Source: Rugalucina vietnamica
Lineage: Eukaryota; Mollusca; Bivalvia; Lucinida; Lucinidae
Direction of reading: 5' to 3'
Assembly (NCBI GenBank): GCA_964017185.1
Contig: OZ024869.1
Coordinates: 68,914,315 to 68,978,314 of the forward strand
DNA length: 64,000 nucleotides
The position numbers and the translations under genes were made by a program. This document shows positions 90 through 63,791 of this stretch, piece after piece (positions within the stretch are counted from its first letter, which is position 1; each line of letters opens with the position of its first letter). The notes beneath the pieces were generated by a model. That model was given only the letters and a program-made list of their open reading frames with translations, did no database searches and had not been told where the DNA came from.

Positions 90-310
90 GAGCCACCGCA
101 TGGGAAAACAAACAATCTGCATATGCGAAAACAAAGACGCAGATCAGCTTCGCGGTAACCGCGAAGCTGATCAGCGCCTTTGTTTTCGCTACAGGAATAG
201 TACAACTCCCCAAAATGTGCAGCCTCTAGTCATCTTCTGAGGCTACGCAGCCTAGTTTGCATCAGATTTGGTCGGAAACACAAATTGTTGATATTGTCAT
301 GCAAAGGCTC
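90..310 (+). mobile_element. GAGCC MITE copy 1
   Basis: Non-autonomous DNA element starting GAGCCACCGCATGGG and ending AAAGGCTC. The 4-bp ATAT lies on both sides (86-89 and 311-314). The palindromic core carries the arms CTTCGCGGT/ACCGCGAAG. The right half is diverged and the right inverted repeat is degraded, so this is an older copy. It has no coding capacity; the 67-codon open frame across it is incidental. Confidence 0.85.
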
Positions 311-1934: not shown

Positions 1935-2109
1935 AGTCCAATTCGCATGCGCAAAAAATACACGCGTGTAAATATACTCCGGTGTGTATTTATACTCCGG
2001 TGTGCAAATCAACCTGAGAGTAAATTTAAATTGCGTTCGCATGGGTTTTATCACCTGGAGTATTTTTGTAGGTAAATATCATTTCTGGATTAAATCTTGA
2101 TCAGTGAAG

Positions 2110-3281
2110 ATGTCAACATATTTTGATTTTTTGCGTTTGCAAAACAAGAAGAAGCTGCTGCAAGGAATTGTTGTAGGGCTGACACTGGGATTATCATATG
2201 AAAAGGAGATATGGAAAAGGGATTCATCCTCCCATTGGTGGGAAAGAATTGTCCTTGAAACTTTCACGGAAGAACAGTGGATTGAGAACTTTCGAATGAA
2301 GAGAGAAACATTTGAATTTGTTTGTTCAAAATTAGAACCCACACTGTCAGCAGACGAGAAACATGTGAGAAAACCTCTGGATGTTAAAACACAGGTTGCC
2401 GTGGCACTCTACTGGCTAGCCTCTTCAGCAGAATATCCGACAGTTGGAAATTTATTTGGAATCGGTACATCAACAGTTCACGAATGTGTTCATGATGTCT
2501 GCAATGCTTTGGTGGAATGCTTGTTAGATGACTATGTGCGTTTCCCAAAAGATGATGACTTAAAAGATGTTGTTGCTGGGTACGAGGAACGCTGGGGGTT
2601 TCCTAACTGTGGAGGGGCCATTGATGGCACCCACCTATCAGAGCACCTCAGAATGCTCATGGGGACTATGTGAATAGGAAGGGATTCTATTCTCTGATTA
2701 TGCAGGCTGTATGTGACTATAAGTACATATTCAGAGATATTAATATTGGCTGGCCTGGTCGTGTTCATGATGCAAGAGTGCTTGCGAATTCAGACATCTT
2801 CTTGAAAGGAGAAACTGGTGCTTTGTTTCCTTCCTGGTGTAAACGGTTGCAGTTGCCAGATAAGGAAGTGTCTCTCCCAATTGTACTCATTGGAGACCCA
2901 GCATATCCTCTGAGACCTTGGCTCTTAAGGCCATATTCCAACAGAGGTCAGCTGTCTGTTGTGCAACAGGCTTTCAATTACAGATTAAGTAGAGCAAGGA
3001 TGACAATAGAAAATTCATTTGGAAGGCTAAAAGGGCGTTGGAGATGCTTGCAATATCGTTTGGATGTGGATACATCTTTTGCTTGTACAGTAATTGCTGC
3101 TTGCGTAATTTTGCACAATGTTTGTGAAATCCATAACGAGGGATACAATGAGGACTGGTTGAATGTAGTGGAGGCTAACGCTGATATGGTGGACAGAGAG
3201 GATGGTCATGCTGAAGCTGCCCAAGATGCTAAAAGACTTAGAGATGACATTGCAAGTGCGTTTGCAAATAATGTTATATAA
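2110..3281 (+). pseudogene. HARBI1-like PIF/Harbinger DDE transposase, one frameshift
   Basis: DDE-superfamily nuclease related to HARBI1 (DDE_Tnp_4 type), expected to cut and paste the element with its Myb-like partner. I start at the ATG at 2110. The N-terminal half holds a helical region (residues about 80-130, VKTQVAVALYWLASS then GIGTSTVHECVHDV) of the helix-turn-helix kind. The catalytic acidic residues are visible: D in GGAIDGTH, D in IGDPAYPLRPWLL, and E in ARMTIENSFGRLKGRW. The family motif NRKGFYS follows the first D, and GWPGRVHDARV comes later. The frame changes immediately after IDGTH, near 2635: a loss of 1 or 4 bases relative to the usual THxxIRAP spacing. The two open halves otherwise abut without a gap. 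The summed length of about 390 residues is normal for the family. A sequencing error cannot be excluded. Confidence 0.9.
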
Positions 3282-5827: not shown

Positions 5828-6044
5828 TCACAGGCTCATGATATCAATTTCTTCATTCGTTGAATTTCCAAGGTAGCTTTCCTGGGAGTCTGTCAGGTAA
5901 GTGGTTGTCGTAGAGGTCTGTGACTGATAAGGACTGTCAGATATCAGTGGCTGATTACTACAGGTGGATGTCTGTTGCTGGTAAATGTTTGCATTCTCGG
6001 ATGGCTGGCCATTTTCGTTGACCCATGACCGAGGCTGGAATGAT

Positions 6045-6515
6045 GTCTGAGGCTGGAAATTAGCACTGGCAGATGTCTGAGGCTGGAAATTAGCAATAGC
6101 TGATGTCTGAGGCTGGAAATCGATGTTGGCTGATGTCTGAGGCTGGAAATCGATGTTGGCCGATGTCTGAGGCTGGAAATTAGCAATAGCTGATGTCTGA
6201 GGCTGGAAATTAGCATTTGCCGATGTCTGAGGCTGGAAAGCATTGGCCGATGTCTGAGGCTGGAAATTAGCATTGGTCGATGTCTGAGGCTGGAAATTAG
6301 CATTTGCCGATGTCTGAGGCTGGAAATTAGCATTGGCCGATGTCTGAGGCTGGAAATTAGCATTGGTCGATGTCTGAGGCTGGAAATTAGCATTGGTCGA
6401 TGTCTGAGGCTGGAAATTAGCATTGGTCGATGTCTGAGGCTGGAAATTAGCATGGGCTGATGTCTGAGGCTGGAAATAAGCATTGGCCAATGTCTGAGGC
6501 TGGAACAAAGTGCTG
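6045..6515 (-). repeat. 30-bp coding minisatellite in the accessory gene
   Basis: About 15 direct units of 30 bp (GATGTCTGAGGCTGGAAATT plus a variable decamer on the plus strand). They encode FQPQTSANAN on the minus strand, and one unit is 27 bp, so length changes keep the frame. Neighbouring units near 6100-6210 are identical in pairs, a sign of recent slippage or unequal exchange. The opposite strand is also open but has no independent support. Confidence 0.9.
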
Positions 6516-6818
6516 GCCGATGCCTGAGGTGGAAAATTAGTGTTGAGATGTCCTTGTGAATTAGATATCATATTCATCATCATTTGCATCATATCAAACT
6601 GATGCTTTCTTTCTTCACGTTTCTGTCTCTCCTCTGACTCTAATTTTGCTTTTTCAAACTCAAGCCTTTTCTTCTCAATGTCAAGTTTTTCCTTTTGAAG
6701 ATCTGCAAACTTTCCTTCAGTTTTTTCATTTGAACTACTAAAACCCTCCATGACTGAACCAAGAGCAATTTCTAGGCGACTTTTTCTCATTTTTCGTTTC
6801 ACCCTTGACTCCTTTTGA

Positions 6819-10301: not shown

Positions 10302-10535
10302 GAGCCACCTCATGGGAAAACCAACAATCTGCATAGGCGAAAACAAAGACGCAGATCAGCTTCGCGGTAACCGCGAAGCTGATCAGCGCCTTTGTTTTCG
10401 CTACTCGGATAGTACAGTTCCTCTTCTACTTAAATCCGAAATTTCAAGATTCTAGCTCTTTTCTGTGACTGTACAGGTCGGTTTGTGTCGGACCTGTTCG
10501 GAAACCACATCGTTGGTTTTCCCACGAGGCGGCTC
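10302..10535 (+). mobile_element. GAGCC MITE copy 3 (full length)
   Basis: Exactly 234 bp, with ATTT duplications at 10298-10301 and 10536-10539. Inverted ends are GAGCCACCTCATGGGAAAAC and GTTTTCCCACGAGGCGGCTC. Its core arms are CTTCGCGGT/ACCGCGAAG with one unpaired position in the whole 64-bp palindrome. The asymmetric half (GGATAGTACAGTTCC to GACCTGTTCGG) marks orientation. Confidence 0.92.
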
Positions 10536-14697: not shown

Positions 14698-14704
14698 CAA
14701 ATAC

Positions 14705-14731
14705 CAGGAGCATAGAGATTATATGCTCCTG
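14705..14731. mobile_element. Tiny palindromic insertion (27 bp) with 7-bp duplication
   Basis: CAGGAGCATAGAG then ATTATATGCTCCTG: ends CAGGAGCAT and ATGCTCCTG are inverted. It is flanked directly by CAAATAC on both sides (14698-14704, 14732-14738). The right half AGAGATTATATGCTCCTG nearly equals the right half of the 42-bp insertion at 42296-42337. See the findings. Confidence 0.6.
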
Positions 14732-15041
14732 CAAATACATAAATGCAAATCAGAGGCTTTTAAGATACTTAGCCACAAGTGTGAAAAGCTTAAGCAAGTA
14801 AGGTTTCGTTATTCCCTCTTTAAAAGCATGTGTTTGTTTTTAACCTGGAACAACAAAAGGAGCACATCATTAGCACCACACAGGTGTTTTACATAAACTT
14901 TCACTAATGCATTTGTTTAATAGGAAACTCAAGGTAAATATGTAAAGAATAACACAGTTTTGTGCCCATTATCAGCTCTGACATTGACTGCAGCTGTAGA
15001 TGTAGCCATGTGATTTTGAATATTTAGGAATGAAAGAAACA

Positions 15042-16677: not shown

Positions 16678-16911
16678 GAGCCACCTCGTGGAAAAACCAA
16701 CAATGTGGTTTCCGAACAGGTCTGACACAAATCAGGCTGTACAGCTACAGAAGCAGGCTAGAAGCTTGAAATTTCGGATTTAAGTAGAAGAGGAATTGAA
16801 CTATCCGAGTTGCGAAAACAAAGGCGCTGATCAGCTTCGCGGTTACCGCGAAGCTGATCTGCGTCTTTGTTTTCGCCTATGCAGATTGCTGGTTTTCCCA
16901 TGAGGCGGCTC
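16678..16911 (-). mobile_element. GAGCC MITE copy 7 (full length)
   Basis: 234 bp, ATAT duplications at 16674-16677 and 16912-16915. Reverse orientation; core arms CTTCGCGGT/ACCGCGAAG with a T/A turn opposite to copy 3. Confidence 0.92.
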
Positions 16912-35056: not shown

Positions 35057-35290
35057 GAGCCTCCTCATGGGAAAACCAACAATCTGCATAGGCGAAAACA
35101 AAGGCGCAGATCAGCTTCGCGGTAACCGCGAAGCTGATCAGCGCCTTTGTTTTCGCTACTCGGATAGTACAATTCCTCTTCTACTTAAATCCGAAATTTC
35201 AAGCTTGTAGCTCTTTTCTGTGCTTGTACAGGCCGGTTTGTGTCGGACCTGTTCGGAAACCACATTGTTGGTTTTCCCACGAGGCGGCTC
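35057..35290 (+). mobile_element. GAGCC MITE copy 14 (full length)
   Basis: 234 bp with the standard core CTTCGCGGT/ACCGCGAAG. Flanks are TTGT and TTGA, so the duplication is imperfect and does not fit A-N-N-T: either an exceptional insertion or later mutation. Confidence 0.9.
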
Positions 35291-38172: not shown

Positions 38173-39136
38173 AAGAAACCAACAAAAACTATCACTCAAA
38201 ATGTAAACCCAGATCAGCTATTCATTACCTGCAGTTTCTATTCAGGTCAAAACGCCAAGATCCTGTAGACAAAACATCCATTTACCAGTCGCCATAAACA
38301 AAGTTTCTTAATTGGCAAACAGGAAATGTCTAAATTGTCACACAATACAGGGTTCAGTCAACACACTTTTGTGTATTCCACTACACACTGAGGTACAGGA
38401 TATTGCCAAAAGTTATTTCCTGTAGAAATCTTTTTTGTTGGTTGAGAAACTGTGTTGAATGGCACTCAGCAGAGAATAAAAATGAAAATAATTGTTATAG
38501 GACACTATTTTGTCAGATGCCAGATTAATGTACAATTACAGTTATGTGGTTTAACATCCCAGTCAACAAGTTTTCAATAGAATCACTATACCCAAAGACC
38601 CTATATCAAATATATGTCATATATGGTCCTATACCTTTAGAGATACAGAAAGTCAAGAAACCAACAAAAACTATCACTCAAAATGTAAACCCAGATCAGC
38701 TATTCATTACCTGCAGTTTCTATTCAGGTCAAAACGCCAAGATCCTGTAGACAAAACATCCATTTACCAGTCGCCATAAACAAAGTTTCTTAATTGGCAA
38801 ACAGGAAATGTCTAAATTGTCACACAATACAGGGTTCAGTCAACACACTTTTGTGTATTCCACTACACACTGAGGTACAGGATATTGCCAAAAGTTATTT
38901 CCTGTAGAAATCTTTTTTGTTGGTTGAGAAACTGTGTTGAATGGCACTCAGCAGAGAATAAAAATGAAAATAATTGTTATAGGACACTATTTTGTCAGAT
39001 GCCAGATTAATGTACAATTACAGTTATGTGGTTTAACATCCCAGTCAACAAGTTTTCAATAGAATCACTATACCCAAAGACCCTATATCAAATATATGTC
39101 ATATATGGTCCTATACCTTTAGAGATACAGAAAGTC
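38173..39136 (+). repeat. Exact tandem duplication, 2 x 482 bp
   Basis: 38173-38654 and 38655-39136 appear identical base for base on reading: both run AAGAAACCAACAAAAAC to AGATACAGAAAGTC. The repeated unit includes a piece of the dispersed GTGGTTTAACATCCCAGTCA repeat. Either a very recent duplication or an assembly duplication. Confidence 0.9.
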
Positions 39137-40380: not shown

Positions 40381-40544
40381 CAGGGGCGTAGCCAGGAAAT
40401 GTGTAATGTTGAAGCCCAACACCTTTTTTCAGTTAAAATTACTTGTTTTTCATAATTTTTCTCAGAAAGACCGGGGGAAATACCATACTTGAAAAAATCA
40501 CGTTGAAGCCCGGGCTTCCAGGCGTCCGCCTGGATACGCCCCTG
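40381..40544. mobile_element. MITE with CAGGGGCGTAGCC ends
   Basis: Inverted ends CAGGGGCGTAGCCAGG and CCTGGATACGCCCCTG, flanked by GACCC (40376-40380, 40545-40549). The GGGGCGTAGCC end is a common animal hAT-like MITE terminus in my knowledge, but hATs make 8-bp duplications and only 5 bp match here. 164 bp, non-coding. Confidence 0.65.
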
Positions 40545-40549
40545 GACCC

Positions 40550-42039
40550 CACACTATGGAGGGGAAGGTGTATCCTGTAAACATGTTAATTCTTTAAGTC
40601 CGAAAGCCTTGTCCTGGTGACACCATTTTCTCTAATGATAATCTAACAAAGTTATTTTTCGTAAGCTTTATTTCTAGGTCGACCTCCCAGAATGTTACTG
40701 ATGGTATTTACAGATCAGCCATTGATAATTGTTAATCATCCATCAATTAGCACACACCTATACCTGTTGTACTTGCTCTAAAAATTAAATAGATAATGCC
40801 ACAGTAAAAATGGCTAAGAGCTTGAAACTTATGATTTAGAATGTACTGTACTATAGATAGTGAAAACAACAGCACTTATATGTATAAAACATTGCAGCTT
40901 TTTTGAGTCTATATTTAGTCATTTGAAAAAAAAGGGGTGGAGGGTATTCATGACTTTATGTCGGTTGACCTTTAACTTGTTATCCAGACATGAGTGCACA
41001 CCCTTATTCTCCAGCAACTTTAGCAATGCAAGTGCGGGTCTCAGAACAGAATTAAATTCATAACGCTCTGAGTCAAAGCCATTTTTTTTTTTCAAATTTT
41101 ACAAGTGTTTGGTCTTGCTAAAATCCTAAAATCTATCAACATGACTGTATCTTCATTATACTGAGTCAATCATTTTCTGATCATCATTTCAGGTGATCAG
41201 TTCATGTAACAAAATTGTAGCACTTAACAGAAAGAATCATTCGGAAGAACAAACTCTGATCATGCAAGCTTGGGAGTTGAACCAAAACTTTCTAGTCACC
41301 TGATGGGGATAAGTTTTGGAGAGTGTCATTGCACCTACTTTTTCTGGAATACGGATTTGCGAATACTGCATTTTCAATGTACAAGACAACCAGCCTCTAG
41401 GTTGGTTGGTTTGGCACCTTTTTACCCAAATACATGTAGATTCATAATTATGTAGGTAAAAGTATGACACCCTGTGAGTCATAGAGATAAGCAGTCTCAG
41501 TAAGAGATGCCAAGTGATTAGCTGCTGCCACTGAGTGTGTGTTTGTTGATGTACCCCATAGGGTTAATCAGCCCTCCCTCAGGTATCTAACTGATAAAAA
41601 CTGTAAGATATCAGAAAAAGAAACATAAGAATCCAGTAAACATACTGTAGAATACCATATTTTCTCTATTTATTTTTCTGCATAGTGTGTTGAGGCACTT
41701 GAACTGCTATTGTAAGCATATTCACTCGGCCACACAGGGGTCTCTAGGTAGCTCAATTTTGAGCAGCCCATTAGAGAGGATAGACAGTTAGCTCTAGCAC
41801 CTTTTTGACATTAAGAATGAACATGTGTAAATGATATGGCCATTAAATCTGTCAGATATAGCACTAGAGATTTTCCGGATGTGGGATTTCAGCAAACAGA
41901 ATCATACATTTAGTGAACACTGTTGCTTGGAATGGTAATAATTGTCAGAAATTTTCAAATTTAAAAGTTAAAATTCATAAAACATAATATGAGTAAATAT
42001 GTTTATATAGCAATTAATTCTATTTTTTTTTTCTCTTTT
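40550..42039. other. Intronic sequence with faint repeat traces
   Basis: Near 40802-40870 (TGGCTAAGAGCTTGAAACTT, then TACTGTACTATAGATAGTGA) there is a highly diverged GAGCC MITE trace. Near 41715-41745 (CACTCGGCCACACAGGGGTC) there is a short inverted match to 44528-44550. No exon. Confidence 0.35.
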
Positions 42040-42044
42040 AATTA

Positions 42045-42273
42045 AGTTTTACGTCCCTTTCAAGATTATTTCAGCTCATATGAGTCGGGCAAGTCAGTAG
42101 ATGGGGCGAAAACGGGAGAACACCGAGAACAACCTCCTGACACACCAGTAAGCAGAACTTGGCTTGTCTCACATGTGGCCAGAGCTGGGCTCGAACCCAC
42201 ACCAGACACAGTGGTGAGATGATCGAGTGATTCAGAAACAGCGCTCTTAACCGCTCGGCCATGGGGGCCGCCA
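42045..42273 (-). mobile_element. SINE-C, derived from a Ser/Leu-type tRNA
   Basis: On the minus strand the head reads ATGGCCGAGCGGTTAAGAGC (an A box of the tRNA-Ser/Leu kind), followed by a variable-arm-like stretch and the B box GGGTTCGAGCC. The body continues to a tail with GGGACGTAAAACTTAATTAA. The A-to-B spacing and TGGCCGAGCGGTTAAG sequence suggest a class II tRNA source, unlike SINE-A and SINE-B. The acceptor stem is not closed, so it is not a working tRNA gene. Confidence 0.75.
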
Positions 42274-42295
42274 TTTAATTCTATTGAGTATCCCC

Positions 42296-42337
42296 CAGGA
42301 GCCTATAATCTCTATAGGGAGAGATTATAGGCTCCTG
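42296..42337. mobile_element. Tiny palindromic insertion (42 bp) with 8-bp duplication
   Basis: A perfect 18-bp stem CAGGAGCCTATAATCTCT and its complement enclose a 6-base loop (ATAGGG). It is flanked exactly by GTATCCCC on both sides (42288-42295, 42338-42345). Nothing but the inverted ends is present. 8-bp duplications are typical of hAT-type transposases. Confidence 0.75.
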
Positions 42338-42387
42338 GTATCCCCATATTTTATTTCCATCACATGCTAAGCCAAATAATCATAAAG

Positions 42388-42419
42388 CAAGTGGCATATA
42401 AGCGCTTATATGCCACTTG
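42388..42419. mobile_element. Tiny palindromic insertion (32 bp) with 8-bp duplication
   Basis: Perfect palindrome with arms CAAGTGGCATATAAGC and GCTTATATGCCACTTG and no loop. It is flanked exactly by TCATAAAG on both sides (42380-42387, 42420-42427). Different sequence from the 42-bp insertion but the same architecture, 50 bp away. Confidence 0.75.
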
Positions 42420-42549
42420 TCATAAAGTTATCACTAAATAGCCACTAGTACTCTTATTACTACAACAAGTTTCCTATTTGATACAAAAAAAAAAAAAAAT
42501 GAATGTCCATTGCACAAGAAATGTTTTAGCCACATGTTTCTATGCATAT

Positions 42550-42775
42550 GAGCCGCCTTGTGAGAAAACCAACAATTTGCTTAGGCGAAAACAAAGACGC
42601 AGATCAGCTTTGCGGTAACTGATCAGCGCCTTTGTTTTCGCTACACGGATAGTACACTTACTCTTCTTCTTAATACGAAATTTTCAACTTCAAGCCTGTT
42701 TCTATTACTGCACAGATCGGTTTGTGTCGGACCTGTTCGGAAACCACCTTGTTAGTTTTTGTACGAGACTGGCTC
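42550..42775 (+). mobile_element. GAGCC MITE copy 16
   Basis: 226 bp, ATAT duplications at 42546-42549 and 42776-42779. The core has lost the inner right arm (CTTTGCGGTAACTGATCAGC), which shortens the copy. Right end TTTTTGTACGAGACTGGCTC has a one-base insertion. Confidence 0.88.
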
Positions 42776-49799: not shown

Positions 49800-50940
49800 G
49801 AAAATTCTCTGGTTAAACACATGATGAAGTTATGAACAGTGTGGCAGTTAATTAGACTGCTTCTAGAGGTCTACTGCTTCTAGAGGTCTGGTCTGATCAG
49901 GGTCTATGGTGCTTACCCAAACATACCTGATAAAACAGGTATTACCATAGGGTCATTACCATTTACCTGTATATTTGTTTGGATCTGTAACATATCTAAA
50001 CCTGCAATCTGGTCAAAATAAGCCATTAGCATCACTAATAAGCTGAAACAGAAACTATAATGCACCTGGATCAAGCTTATCATGTAGGCTGACCTCATAA
50101 ACAAGGCACCCACCTAAACTGGCCTAATAATGATCAATAATGGACATGAGGATGGCAATGATGATACCAAACATATCATGCTGCAAAACTGACATATTGA
50201 ATGTTCTGAAAAAAATTGAATGACAAAGCCCTTGTTTTGAGTTCTACATCATCCAAGAAGATAAAGAGATAGGAAGCAAACTCATGCTACCCTGATTATT
50301 TTACTAAATGCAGTTTTACATGTTACAGTGAAGTAACCCATTTGGATAGCAATTCTATTTCATCCCTGGTCCAAATGGGTAACTCCCCTTTTCAGAATAA
50401 AATTGGGTCCAATTGCTGCTAGTGTTCCTTAGAGCAACTACGGTACCCCAATTATTTTACTGTTATCATTTTCTCTCCAGAGACAAAGAAAGACCTCTCA
50501 GGTAAATTGACTTTCTGGCAACTAAACAAGCTGCCTTTCTTCAACAGGAACAAACTGAATCCATCACTCTCAGAAAGTTTACTGTAAATAATCTTAATGT
50601 TTAAACTGAGTATCCAAAATAATGAAAGAATACAAAATATTATTACAAGTATTTTTTTTTAAAGTTGCTAACAATACACATTTTTAAAAACAAAATTATA
50701 AATTACAAACTATGTATAACCATAATGTTTATCAGTCCCTTCTAGGCTGCCAAGGAAGCTTCTGACCCATTCTCAAATTCTGTCCACTCCATTTTTACAA
50801 TAGTGGACATATACTAGAACAAAAAAGAAAGCATCTATTGATTGTAATGTGTTAGCTAGGATGTTTGTTGAACATTGTAGATCTAAGATATGAGAAAACA
50901 TAGTGCAGTACTCTGAGTACAGTTTCAGTAGATCATAATT
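49800..50940. other. Sequence without recognised gene
   Basis: One imperfect short hairpin (ACCCATTTGGA and TCCAAATGGGT, about 50337-50384) occurs without a clear flanking duplication. Nothing else noted. Confidence 0.35.
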
Positions 50941-51284: not shown

Positions 51285-51670
51285 TTGCTTTGTTGCTTAA
51301 TGTCCAAGTCAACAGCTATGGTTACGTCGAGACGTCACCTCCATTTTCATAGGATTTCTAAGTCCAAAACTTTGTTAGCTTAATGACATCGTTAAGACCT
51401 AACCTCGTTAAGTAAATGCCCACTACATAAGCAAATACACTGTTATTTTTTGTTGAAAAAATGTGAGAATCTCTCTCACATTTTATCAACAAAAAATAAC
51501 AGTGTATTTGTAATACTCATGTTTGAAATTTTAACAAATCTCGTTAATTTTGAACAACTGGGCCCAGGATGTCATGACATCCTCAATGTGCTGAAATATA
51601 GCACCAGCCAAGTAAAGGACTAAAGCCTATGGATGTCCATGTTTCCTGGGCAGACTTTCTAAGCAATTAC
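51285..51670 (+). repeat. Dispersed CAGTCAACAGCTATGGTC repeat, with an inserted hairpin
   Basis: TGCTTAATGTCCAAGTCAAC, AGCTATGGTTACGTCGAGAC, CAGGATGTCATGACATCC and TGTTTCCTGGGCAGAC match the 39.2-kb copy. A long hairpin lies within it (51432-51510). Confidence 0.6.
51432..51510. repeat. Long imperfect hairpin, about 37-bp arms
   Basis: Left arm CAAATACACTGTTATTTTTT-GTTGAAAAAATGTGAGA and its near-perfect complement flank a 5-base centre (ATCTC). No flanking duplication was found, so it may have arisen by replication template switching rather than transposition. Confidence 0.7.
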
Positions 51671-59252: not shown

Positions 59253-59486
59253 GAGCCGCCTCATGGGAAAACCAACAATCTGCATAGGCGAAAACAAAGA
59301 CGCAGATCAGCTTCGCGGTAACCGCGAAGCTGATCAGCGCCTTTGTTTTCGCTACTCGGATAGTACAATTCCACTTCTACTTAAATCCGAAATTTCCAGC
59401 TTCTAGCCAGGTTCTGTGACGGTACAGATCAGTTTGTGTCGGACCTGTCCGGAAGCCACATTGTTGGTTTTTCCACGAGGCGGCTC
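59253..59486 (+). mobile_element. GAGCC MITE copy 19 (full length)
   Basis: 234 bp, ATAT duplications at 59249-59252 and 59487-59490. Core arms CTTCGCGGT/ACCGCGAAG; ends GAGCCGCCTCATGGGAAAAC and TTTTTCCACGAGGCGGCTC. Close to copies 3, 13, 14 and 20. Confidence 0.92.
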
Positions 59487-63557: not shown

Positions 63558-63791
63558 GAGCCGCCTCATGGGAAAACCAACAATCTGCATAGGCGAAAAC
63601 AAAGGCGCAGATCAGCTTCGCCATTACCGCGAAGCTGATCAGCGCCTTTGTTTTCGCTACCCGGATAGTACAATTCCTCTTCTACTTAAATCCAAAATTT
63701 CAAGCTTCTAGCTCTTTTCTGTGACTGTACAGGTTGGTTTGTGTCGGACCTGCTCGGAAACCACATTGTTGGTTTTCCAACGAGACGGCTC
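63558..63791 (+). mobile_element. GAGCC MITE copy 20 (full length)
   Basis: 234 bp, AAAT duplications at 63554-63557 and 63792-63795. Core arms CTTCGCCAT/ACCGCGAAG: the left arm has changed while the right keeps the standard sequence. Ends GAGCCGCCTCATGGGAAAAC and TTTTCCAACGAGACGGCTC. Confidence 0.92.

What the first reader, a model, noticed from the sequence alone, without database searches (positions are those of the whole stretch)
42288..42427. Two tiny perfect palindromes, each an insertion with an exact 8-bp target duplication, 50 bp apart
A 42-bp hairpin (18-bp perfect stem) is flanked by GTATCCCC/GTATCCCC. A 32-bp perfect palindrome is flanked by TCATAAAG/TCATAAAG. Each consists of almost nothing but its own inverted ends. 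The two are unrelated in sequence but identical in design, so a process that inserts minimal hairpins with 8-bp staggered cuts is implied. 8-bp duplications fit a hAT-type transposase, but elements this short are far below usual MITE length.
Basis: partly seen in the sequence, partly recalled or inferred. Interest (0 to 1): 0.85.

Follow-up and report, generated by a model that had tools for sequence, protein, structure and literature searches.

The report
Tiny hairpin insertions with 8-bp duplications
Very short hairpin sequences (27 to 42 bases) in this genome window carry the footprint of a jumping gene's insertion although almost nothing but the element's two ends is present, which is shorter than the ends that well-studied transposons of the best-fitting type are known to need.

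Summary
E1 (42296-42337, 18-bp perfect stem, 6-nt loop) lies between copies of GTATCCCC; E2 (42388-42419, perfect 32-bp palindrome) between copies of TCATAAAG. Chance is excluded: of 64 hairpins in the window, E1, E2 and one more have abutting direct repeats of 7-8 bp; of 1928 hairpins in 150 shuffles two reach 7 and none 8. The third, E3 (14705-14731, 27 bp, repeat CAAATAC), is not in the finding. It belongs to E1's family: 26 of its 27 bases align to E1 with one 15-bp gap. So these are transposon-derived insertions with CA...TG ends and 8-bp (once 7-bp) target duplications. They work like hAT insertions, but I do not file them as hAT: no transposase was found, and two hAT features are not met. 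Best reading: ultra-short, ends-only MITE-like elements. Whether the tiny form itself moves or is the collapsed rest of longer insertions cannot be settled here, because no host genome is held. New variant of a known kind. Thirty bacterial hairpins with the same outer arms have no such duplication.

The parts
42288..42295 (.). left target-site duplication of E1, GTATCCCC
42296..42337 (.). E1: 42-bp palindromic element, 18-bp perfect arms CAGGAGCCTATAATCTCT, 6-nt loop ATAGGG
42338..42345 (.). right target-site duplication of E1, GTATCCCC
42380..42387 (.). left target-site duplication of E2, TCATAAAG
42388..42419 (.). E2: 32-bp perfect palindrome, 16-bp arms CAAGTGGCATATAAGC
42420..42427 (.). 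right target-site duplication of E2, TCATAAAG
14698..14704 (.). left 7-bp duplication of E3, CAAATAC
14705..14731 (-). E3: 27-bp element of the E1 family, reverse orientation relative to E1; 10-bp outer arms; aligns to E1 at 26 of 27 bases with one 15-bp gap
14732..14738 (.). right 7-bp duplication of E3, CAAATAC

Best explanation
E1, E2 and E3 are insertions of ends-only (ultra-short MITE-like) elements of DNA transposons that cut their target with an 8-bp stagger, working like hAT elements. Mechanism committed to: a transposase encoded elsewhere recognises the 16-18-bp CA...TG ends, joins them to staggered target cuts, and host repair fills the gaps to give the duplications; the form that propagates is already tiny, and E3 lost a further 15 bp inside it. 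Shown: the palindromes, the duplications, the E1/E3 family relation. Inferred: the transposase type, that the short form itself moves, and the 15-bp deletion.
For: Abutting repeats of 7-8 bp in 3 of 64 hairpins against 2 of 1928 in shuffles. E1 and E3: 26 of 27 bases with one 15-bp gap; their 18-nt arms differ at one position, a score reached by 0 of 20000 shuffled arms. All three begin CA and end TG. No other place in the window has 3 or fewer mismatches to CAGGAGCNTATAATCTC; for the E2 arm there is one, at 1691, with 3 mismatches, not followed up. hAT elements have 8-bp duplications and 5-27-bp ends (PMC3517528, passages). No mismatch between the arms or between the duplications of any of the three, so they look recent.
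Against: Known hAT elements need far longer ends: Tol2 200 and 150 bp, Tag1 about 100 bp, Ac at least 200 bp, Hermes about 200 bp (PMC10368747, passages); a 32-bp duplex also leaves little room to bring two ends side by side (inference). What E1 and E3 share is almost only arm sequence plus two loop bases, which collapse of longer elements would also leave, so their likeness does not by itself show that the short form moves. E3's duplication is 7 bp. No hAT transposase: Pfam on 10 of 38 listed ORFs, none hAT; the other 28 and anything under 100 aa were not scanned. One window only. Asking for perfect arms and repeats favours young copies.
Confidence: 0.46

Rival explanations
1. Collapse after arrival: ordinary, longer elements inserted with 8-bp duplications and then lost nearly all internal sequence, for example by interrupted gap repair after excision. 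The tiny form itself never moved.
For: Needs no break with known hAT end-length requirements. E1 and E3 have different lengths (42 and 27 bp), and in E1's orientation E3 keeps 20 nt on one side and 7 nt on the other, as unequal remnants would. The E1/E3 likeness is nearly confined to the arms.
Against: Three loci with two kinds of end are all within 0-7 nt of a pure palindrome, and no second end within 3 mismatches was seen that would make a longer copy of the E1 family in 64 kb. A random internal deletion seldom ends symmetrically on both arms, as in E2 (inference).
Confidence: 0.36
2. Same design, but a transposase superfamily other than hAT with duplications of about 8 bp (P, Mutator-like, Merlin, Zisupton and relatives; list recalled). 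This cuts across the two readings above.
For: Duplication length alone does not single out hAT; the hAT end consensus YARNG (recalled, no call) fails at position 5 in both kinds of end; only one of two 8-bp duplications fits a hAT target pattern fully (patterns).
Against: CA...TG ends suit hAT. If the host is a bivalve (recalled impression, not tested), hAT follows Tc/mariner as the richest DDE superfamily there and Zisupton and Novosib types were found almost only in cephalopods; the same paper does list 39 Mutator-like and 3 Merlin elements in its curated bivalve library (PMC10294476, passages).
Confidence: 0.2
3. Not transposition: template-switch or break-repair events that wrote palindromic filler between duplicated overhangs.
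For: Loop-free palindromes such as E2 can arise by fold-back copying (general knowledge, no call); E2 has no second copy in the window.
Against: E1 and E3 share sequence at separate sites, and three events with 7-8-bp duplications and CA...TG ends are not expected from random repair.
Confidence: 0.06
4. Chance coincidence of palindromes and direct repeats.
For: The window is rich in other hairpins, and shuffles do give 7-bp repeats twice.
Against: 0 of 1928 shuffled hairpins have 8-bp repeats; 0 of 30 bacterial hairpins with the same outer arms have abutting repeats of 3 bp or more.
Confidence: 0.01

Closest known systems
hAT MITEs, for example Mar of Drosophila willistoni, 610 bp, 11-bp ends, 8-bp duplications (PMC3517528, passages)
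   Same: 8-bp target duplications, short inverted ends starting CA, no coding capacity
   Different: 14 to 23 times longer, with internal sequence; Mar ends are CAG(G/A)GGTAGGC, not CAGGAGC or CAAGTGG
MADE1-type palindromic mariner MITEs of human (recalled; one search listed 0 papers holding all four terms)
   Same: an element that is almost only two inverted ends with a loop of about 6 nt (recalled)
   Different: about 80 bp and TA duplications (recalled); E1 is half as long with 8-bp duplications
Palindromic MITE-like clusters of Anopheles gambiae (PMC3212995, passages)
   Same: six of 32 clusters are palindromic repeats with no match to known elements
   Different: total lengths 430-1678 nt

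Membership tests
hAT superfamily (non-autonomous) | 8-bp target-site duplication | tested here: met
   E1 and E2 exact 8 of 8; E3 only 7 bp; feature
hAT superfamily (non-autonomous) | short terminal inverted repeats (5-27 bp) | tested here: met
   18, 16 and 10 bp perfect outer arms; range
hAT superfamily (non-autonomous) | end consensus YARNG (recalled, no call) | tested here: not met
   CAGGA and CAAGT fit positions 1-4, not position 5 (sequence)
hAT superfamily (non-autonomous) | target pattern nTnnnnAn (Hermes) or nnnTAnnn (Buster) | tested here: inconclusive
   TCATAAAG fits nnnTAnnn; GTATCCCC fits each pattern at one of two positions; patterns
hAT superfamily (non-autonomous) | long ends with subterminal transposase-binding repeats (about 100-200 bp in tested elements) | tested here: not met
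   elements are 27-42 bp; requirements from PMC10368747. E2 holds AAGT, then GGC, then ATATAA in each arm; E1 has no AAGT or AAGC on either strand (sequence)
hAT superfamily (non-autonomous) | matching autonomous element with a hAT transposase | not testable with these tools
   no host genome held; 10 of 38 listed window ORFs scanned, none hAT
MITE | non-coding, inverted ends, target duplication | tested here: met
MITE | many near-identical copies in the genome | tested here: inconclusive
   two copies of the E1 family and one of E2 in 64 kb; genome not available

The most novel reading that the evidence does not exclude
Perfect palindromes of 30-42 bp are themselves mobile: a transposase with 8-bp staggered cuts moves elements that are nothing but two abutting ends, so the long subterminal regions and end spacing thought to be essential for hAT elements are dispensable, perhaps through extrusion of the palindrome or pairing of ends in trans.
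Probability: 0.33. Interest if true: 0.78.

Novelty: new variant of a known kind. Interest (0 to 1): 0.55.

Why it matters
Elements this short are easily passed over when repeats are annotated, so a class of insertions could be missing from annotations (inference). If the tiny form moves, it sets a new lower bound for what a cut-and-paste transposase can mobilise; if it is a remnant, it is a scar of failed excision. Each copy plants a strong hairpin. Three in 64 kb would scale to tens per megabase, but this is one chosen window.

Tried and rejected
Rejected: chance. One search also lists other 8-bp repeat/end pairs in the window (for example three rows inside the 30-bp tandem array at 6042-6540 and several between copies of the 65-bp hairpin family); I put these down to repeats, by eye. 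Rejected: structured RNA; no Rfam match at gathering score in the window; six matches at E up to 1 in 41980-42480, five of them over E1 (one of these over both E1 and E2), all below their gathering scores. Rejected: a shared element with bacteria or viruses; 3 viral contigs match the 17-nt arm, with no E1-like partner arm in the 45 bases shown on either side; paired-arm patterns match 0 viral contigs; 29 bacterial contigs hold 30 hairpins with the outer arms, 0 of 30 continue as AATCTC in the orientation printed and 0 of 30 have abutting repeats of 3 bp or more. Led nowhere: empty sites in the window. The joined flanks of E1, E2 and E3 had no second match across the insertion point; partial matches were the repeat family to the right of E1 and E2, the neighbouring hairpin itself, and a weak 61-base match in E3's left flank. 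Led nowhere: the end motifs in papers (10 papers, judged from titles and abstract starts, other fields); wording such as shortest or smallest MITE (20 of 22 listed, 5 papers), palindromic hAT MITEs (2 papers, 20 of 58 listed, 20 of 139 listed) and bivalve hAT MITEs (15 papers). In those listings I saw no description of elements of this size; this covers open-licence PubMed Central papers only. Passages were read in PMC3517528, PMC10368747, PMC3212995, PMC10294476 and PMC12595863 (the last gave one passage, nothing on length); no paper was read whole.

In the alignment that partner base can equally belong to the loop side of the gap, so it is not independent evidence; this, and the fact that the E1/E3 likeness is nearly confined to the arms, lowered the favoured reading from 0.5 to 0.46 and raised the collapse reading from 0.33 to 0.36 (novel case 0.35 to 0.33).

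Full report
Observation. E1 is CAGGAGCCTATAATCTCT-ATAGGG-AGAGATTATAGGCTCCTG between two copies of GTATCCCC. E2 is CAAGTGGCATATAAGC-GCTTATATGCCACTTG between two copies of TCATAAAG.

Is it chance? One search listed 47 hairpin rows with stems of 11 or more (loop up to 60) against 0 to 4 in ten shuffles; most of the 47 belong to one unrelated 65-bp repeat family or to a C/G run. In one search, 64 hairpins (stem 9 or more, loop up to 40, low-complexity arms dropped by rule) gave abutting direct repeats of 8 bp in two, 7 in one, 5 in one, and 3 or fewer in sixty. 150 shuffles gave 1928 hairpins with none at 8, two at 7, two at 6, six at 5, and no stem above 14. In the window, then, a group at 7-8 bp stands apart from a group at 5 bp or less. 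A stricter scan (exact 8-bp repeat, at least 10 of 12 end matches, 80 bp or shorter) gave E1 and E2 in the window and none in 60 shuffles. A second control came from outside: 29 bacterial contigs hold 30 hairpins with the outer arms CAGGAGCNTAT...ATANGCTCCTG; the longest abutting direct repeat is 2 bp.

A third member. The scan found E3 at 14705-14731, CAGGAGCATAGAGATTATATGCTCCTG between two copies of CAAATAC. Turned over, it reads CAGGAGCATATAATCTCTAT-GCTCCTG and aligns to E1 at 26 of 27 bases with a single 15-bp gap. The substitution is at position 8 (C in E1, A in E3). E3's outer arms agree with each other there (A opposite T), but the T can also be read as loop sequence next to the gap, so a matched change on both arms is possible and not shown. 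If E3 came from a 42-bp form with A at that position, a deletion between two TAT words would explain it (inference). The 7-bp duplication is one base short of 8.

Are E1 and E2 related? The E3-type arm and the E2 arm align with CATATAA in common after a one-base gap; 269 of 20000 shuffled arms (CA kept) score as well, and 1142 of 20000 for the E1 arm. Suggestive, not proven.

Age. No mismatch occurs between the arms (18, 16 and 10 pairs) or between the duplications (8, 8 and 7 bp). A relaxed scan (ends CA...TG, at least 10 of 14 end matches, at least 6 of 8 duplication matches, 20-699 bp) returned 11 rows: E1, E2 and 9 others whose ends are different sequences (E3 is not caught because its repeat is 7 bp). 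No decayed copy of either kind was seen in that scan.

Source. All three elements begin CA and end TG with 7-8-bp duplications. This fits hAT elements (8-bp duplications, 5-27-bp ends; PMC3517528, passages). TCATAAAG fits the Buster target pattern nnnTAnnn; GTATCCCC fits neither that nor nTnnnnAn fully. Each arm of E2 carries AAGT, then GGC, then ATATAA; AAGT with a following AT-rich region is the site bound by the Hermes BED domain (PMC10368747, passages); E1 has no AAGT. The recalled end consensus YARNG fails at position 5 for both. The elements are far shorter than the ends needed by Tol2, Tag1, Ac and Hermes. Pfam on 10 of 38 listed ORFs found a DDE_Tnp_4 transposase and a BTB domain above cut-off, no hAT. 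hAT is the leading guess, not a finding, and I do not file the elements as hAT members.

How it works. Two readings fit. Either the tiny form is the mobile unit, or longer insertions collapsed. For the first: three loci with two kinds of end are all tiny, and no second end that would make a longer copy of the E1 family was seen in 64 kb. For the second: hAT end requirements, the unequal arms of E3, and the fact that E1 and E3 share little beyond their arms. I favour the first at 0.46 and give the second 0.36. No host genome was available, and the joined flanks have no second match across the insertion points in the window.

Novelty. Elements reduced to their ends are known in principle (MADE1, recalled), but I saw none of 27-42 bp with 8-bp duplications in the paper listings. 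I rate it a new variant of a known kind.

Noticed in passing
window 40381-40544: A 164-bp element with 16-bp inverted ends CAGGGGCGTAGCCAGG / CAGGGGCGTATCCAGG (15 of 16 alike) and TGGACCCCA repeated around and overlapping its ends; looks like an ordinary hAT-type MITE, with the duplication boundary ambiguous.
   Followed up: partly
window 125-189, 10337-10401, 16812-16876, 35092-35156, 42585-42641, 59288-59352, 63593-63657 and others: A near-perfect palindrome family of about 65 bp (GCGAAAACAAAG...CTTTGTTTTCGC) with conserved flanks, so part of a longer repeat; a 26-nt half-motif matches 36 places at 5 mismatches or fewer.
   Followed up: partly
window 51432-51510: A 79-bp hairpin with a 25-bp perfect stem plus an inner 11-bp stem, CAAATACACTG...CAGTGTATTTG, with no abutting direct repeat of 5 bp or more.
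   Followed up: partly
window 50336-50380: An 11-bp-stem hairpin with a possible 5-bp flanking repeat GTAAC; compatible with chance (10 of 1928 shuffled hairpins have 5 or more).
   Followed up: no
window 38173-39136: Two tandem copies of a 482-bp unit, 100 percent matches in Tandem Repeats Finder.
   Followed up: no
window 2101-3281: Two overlapping ORFs in different frames; the second matches DDE_Tnp_4 (PF13359), the first has no Pfam match; perhaps a Harbinger-like transposase gene (link recalled).
   Followed up: partly
window 42080-42270: On the minus strand a stretch that by eye resembles a tRNA-derived SINE head next to E1; ARAGORN and Rfam called no tRNA there.
   Followed up: partly
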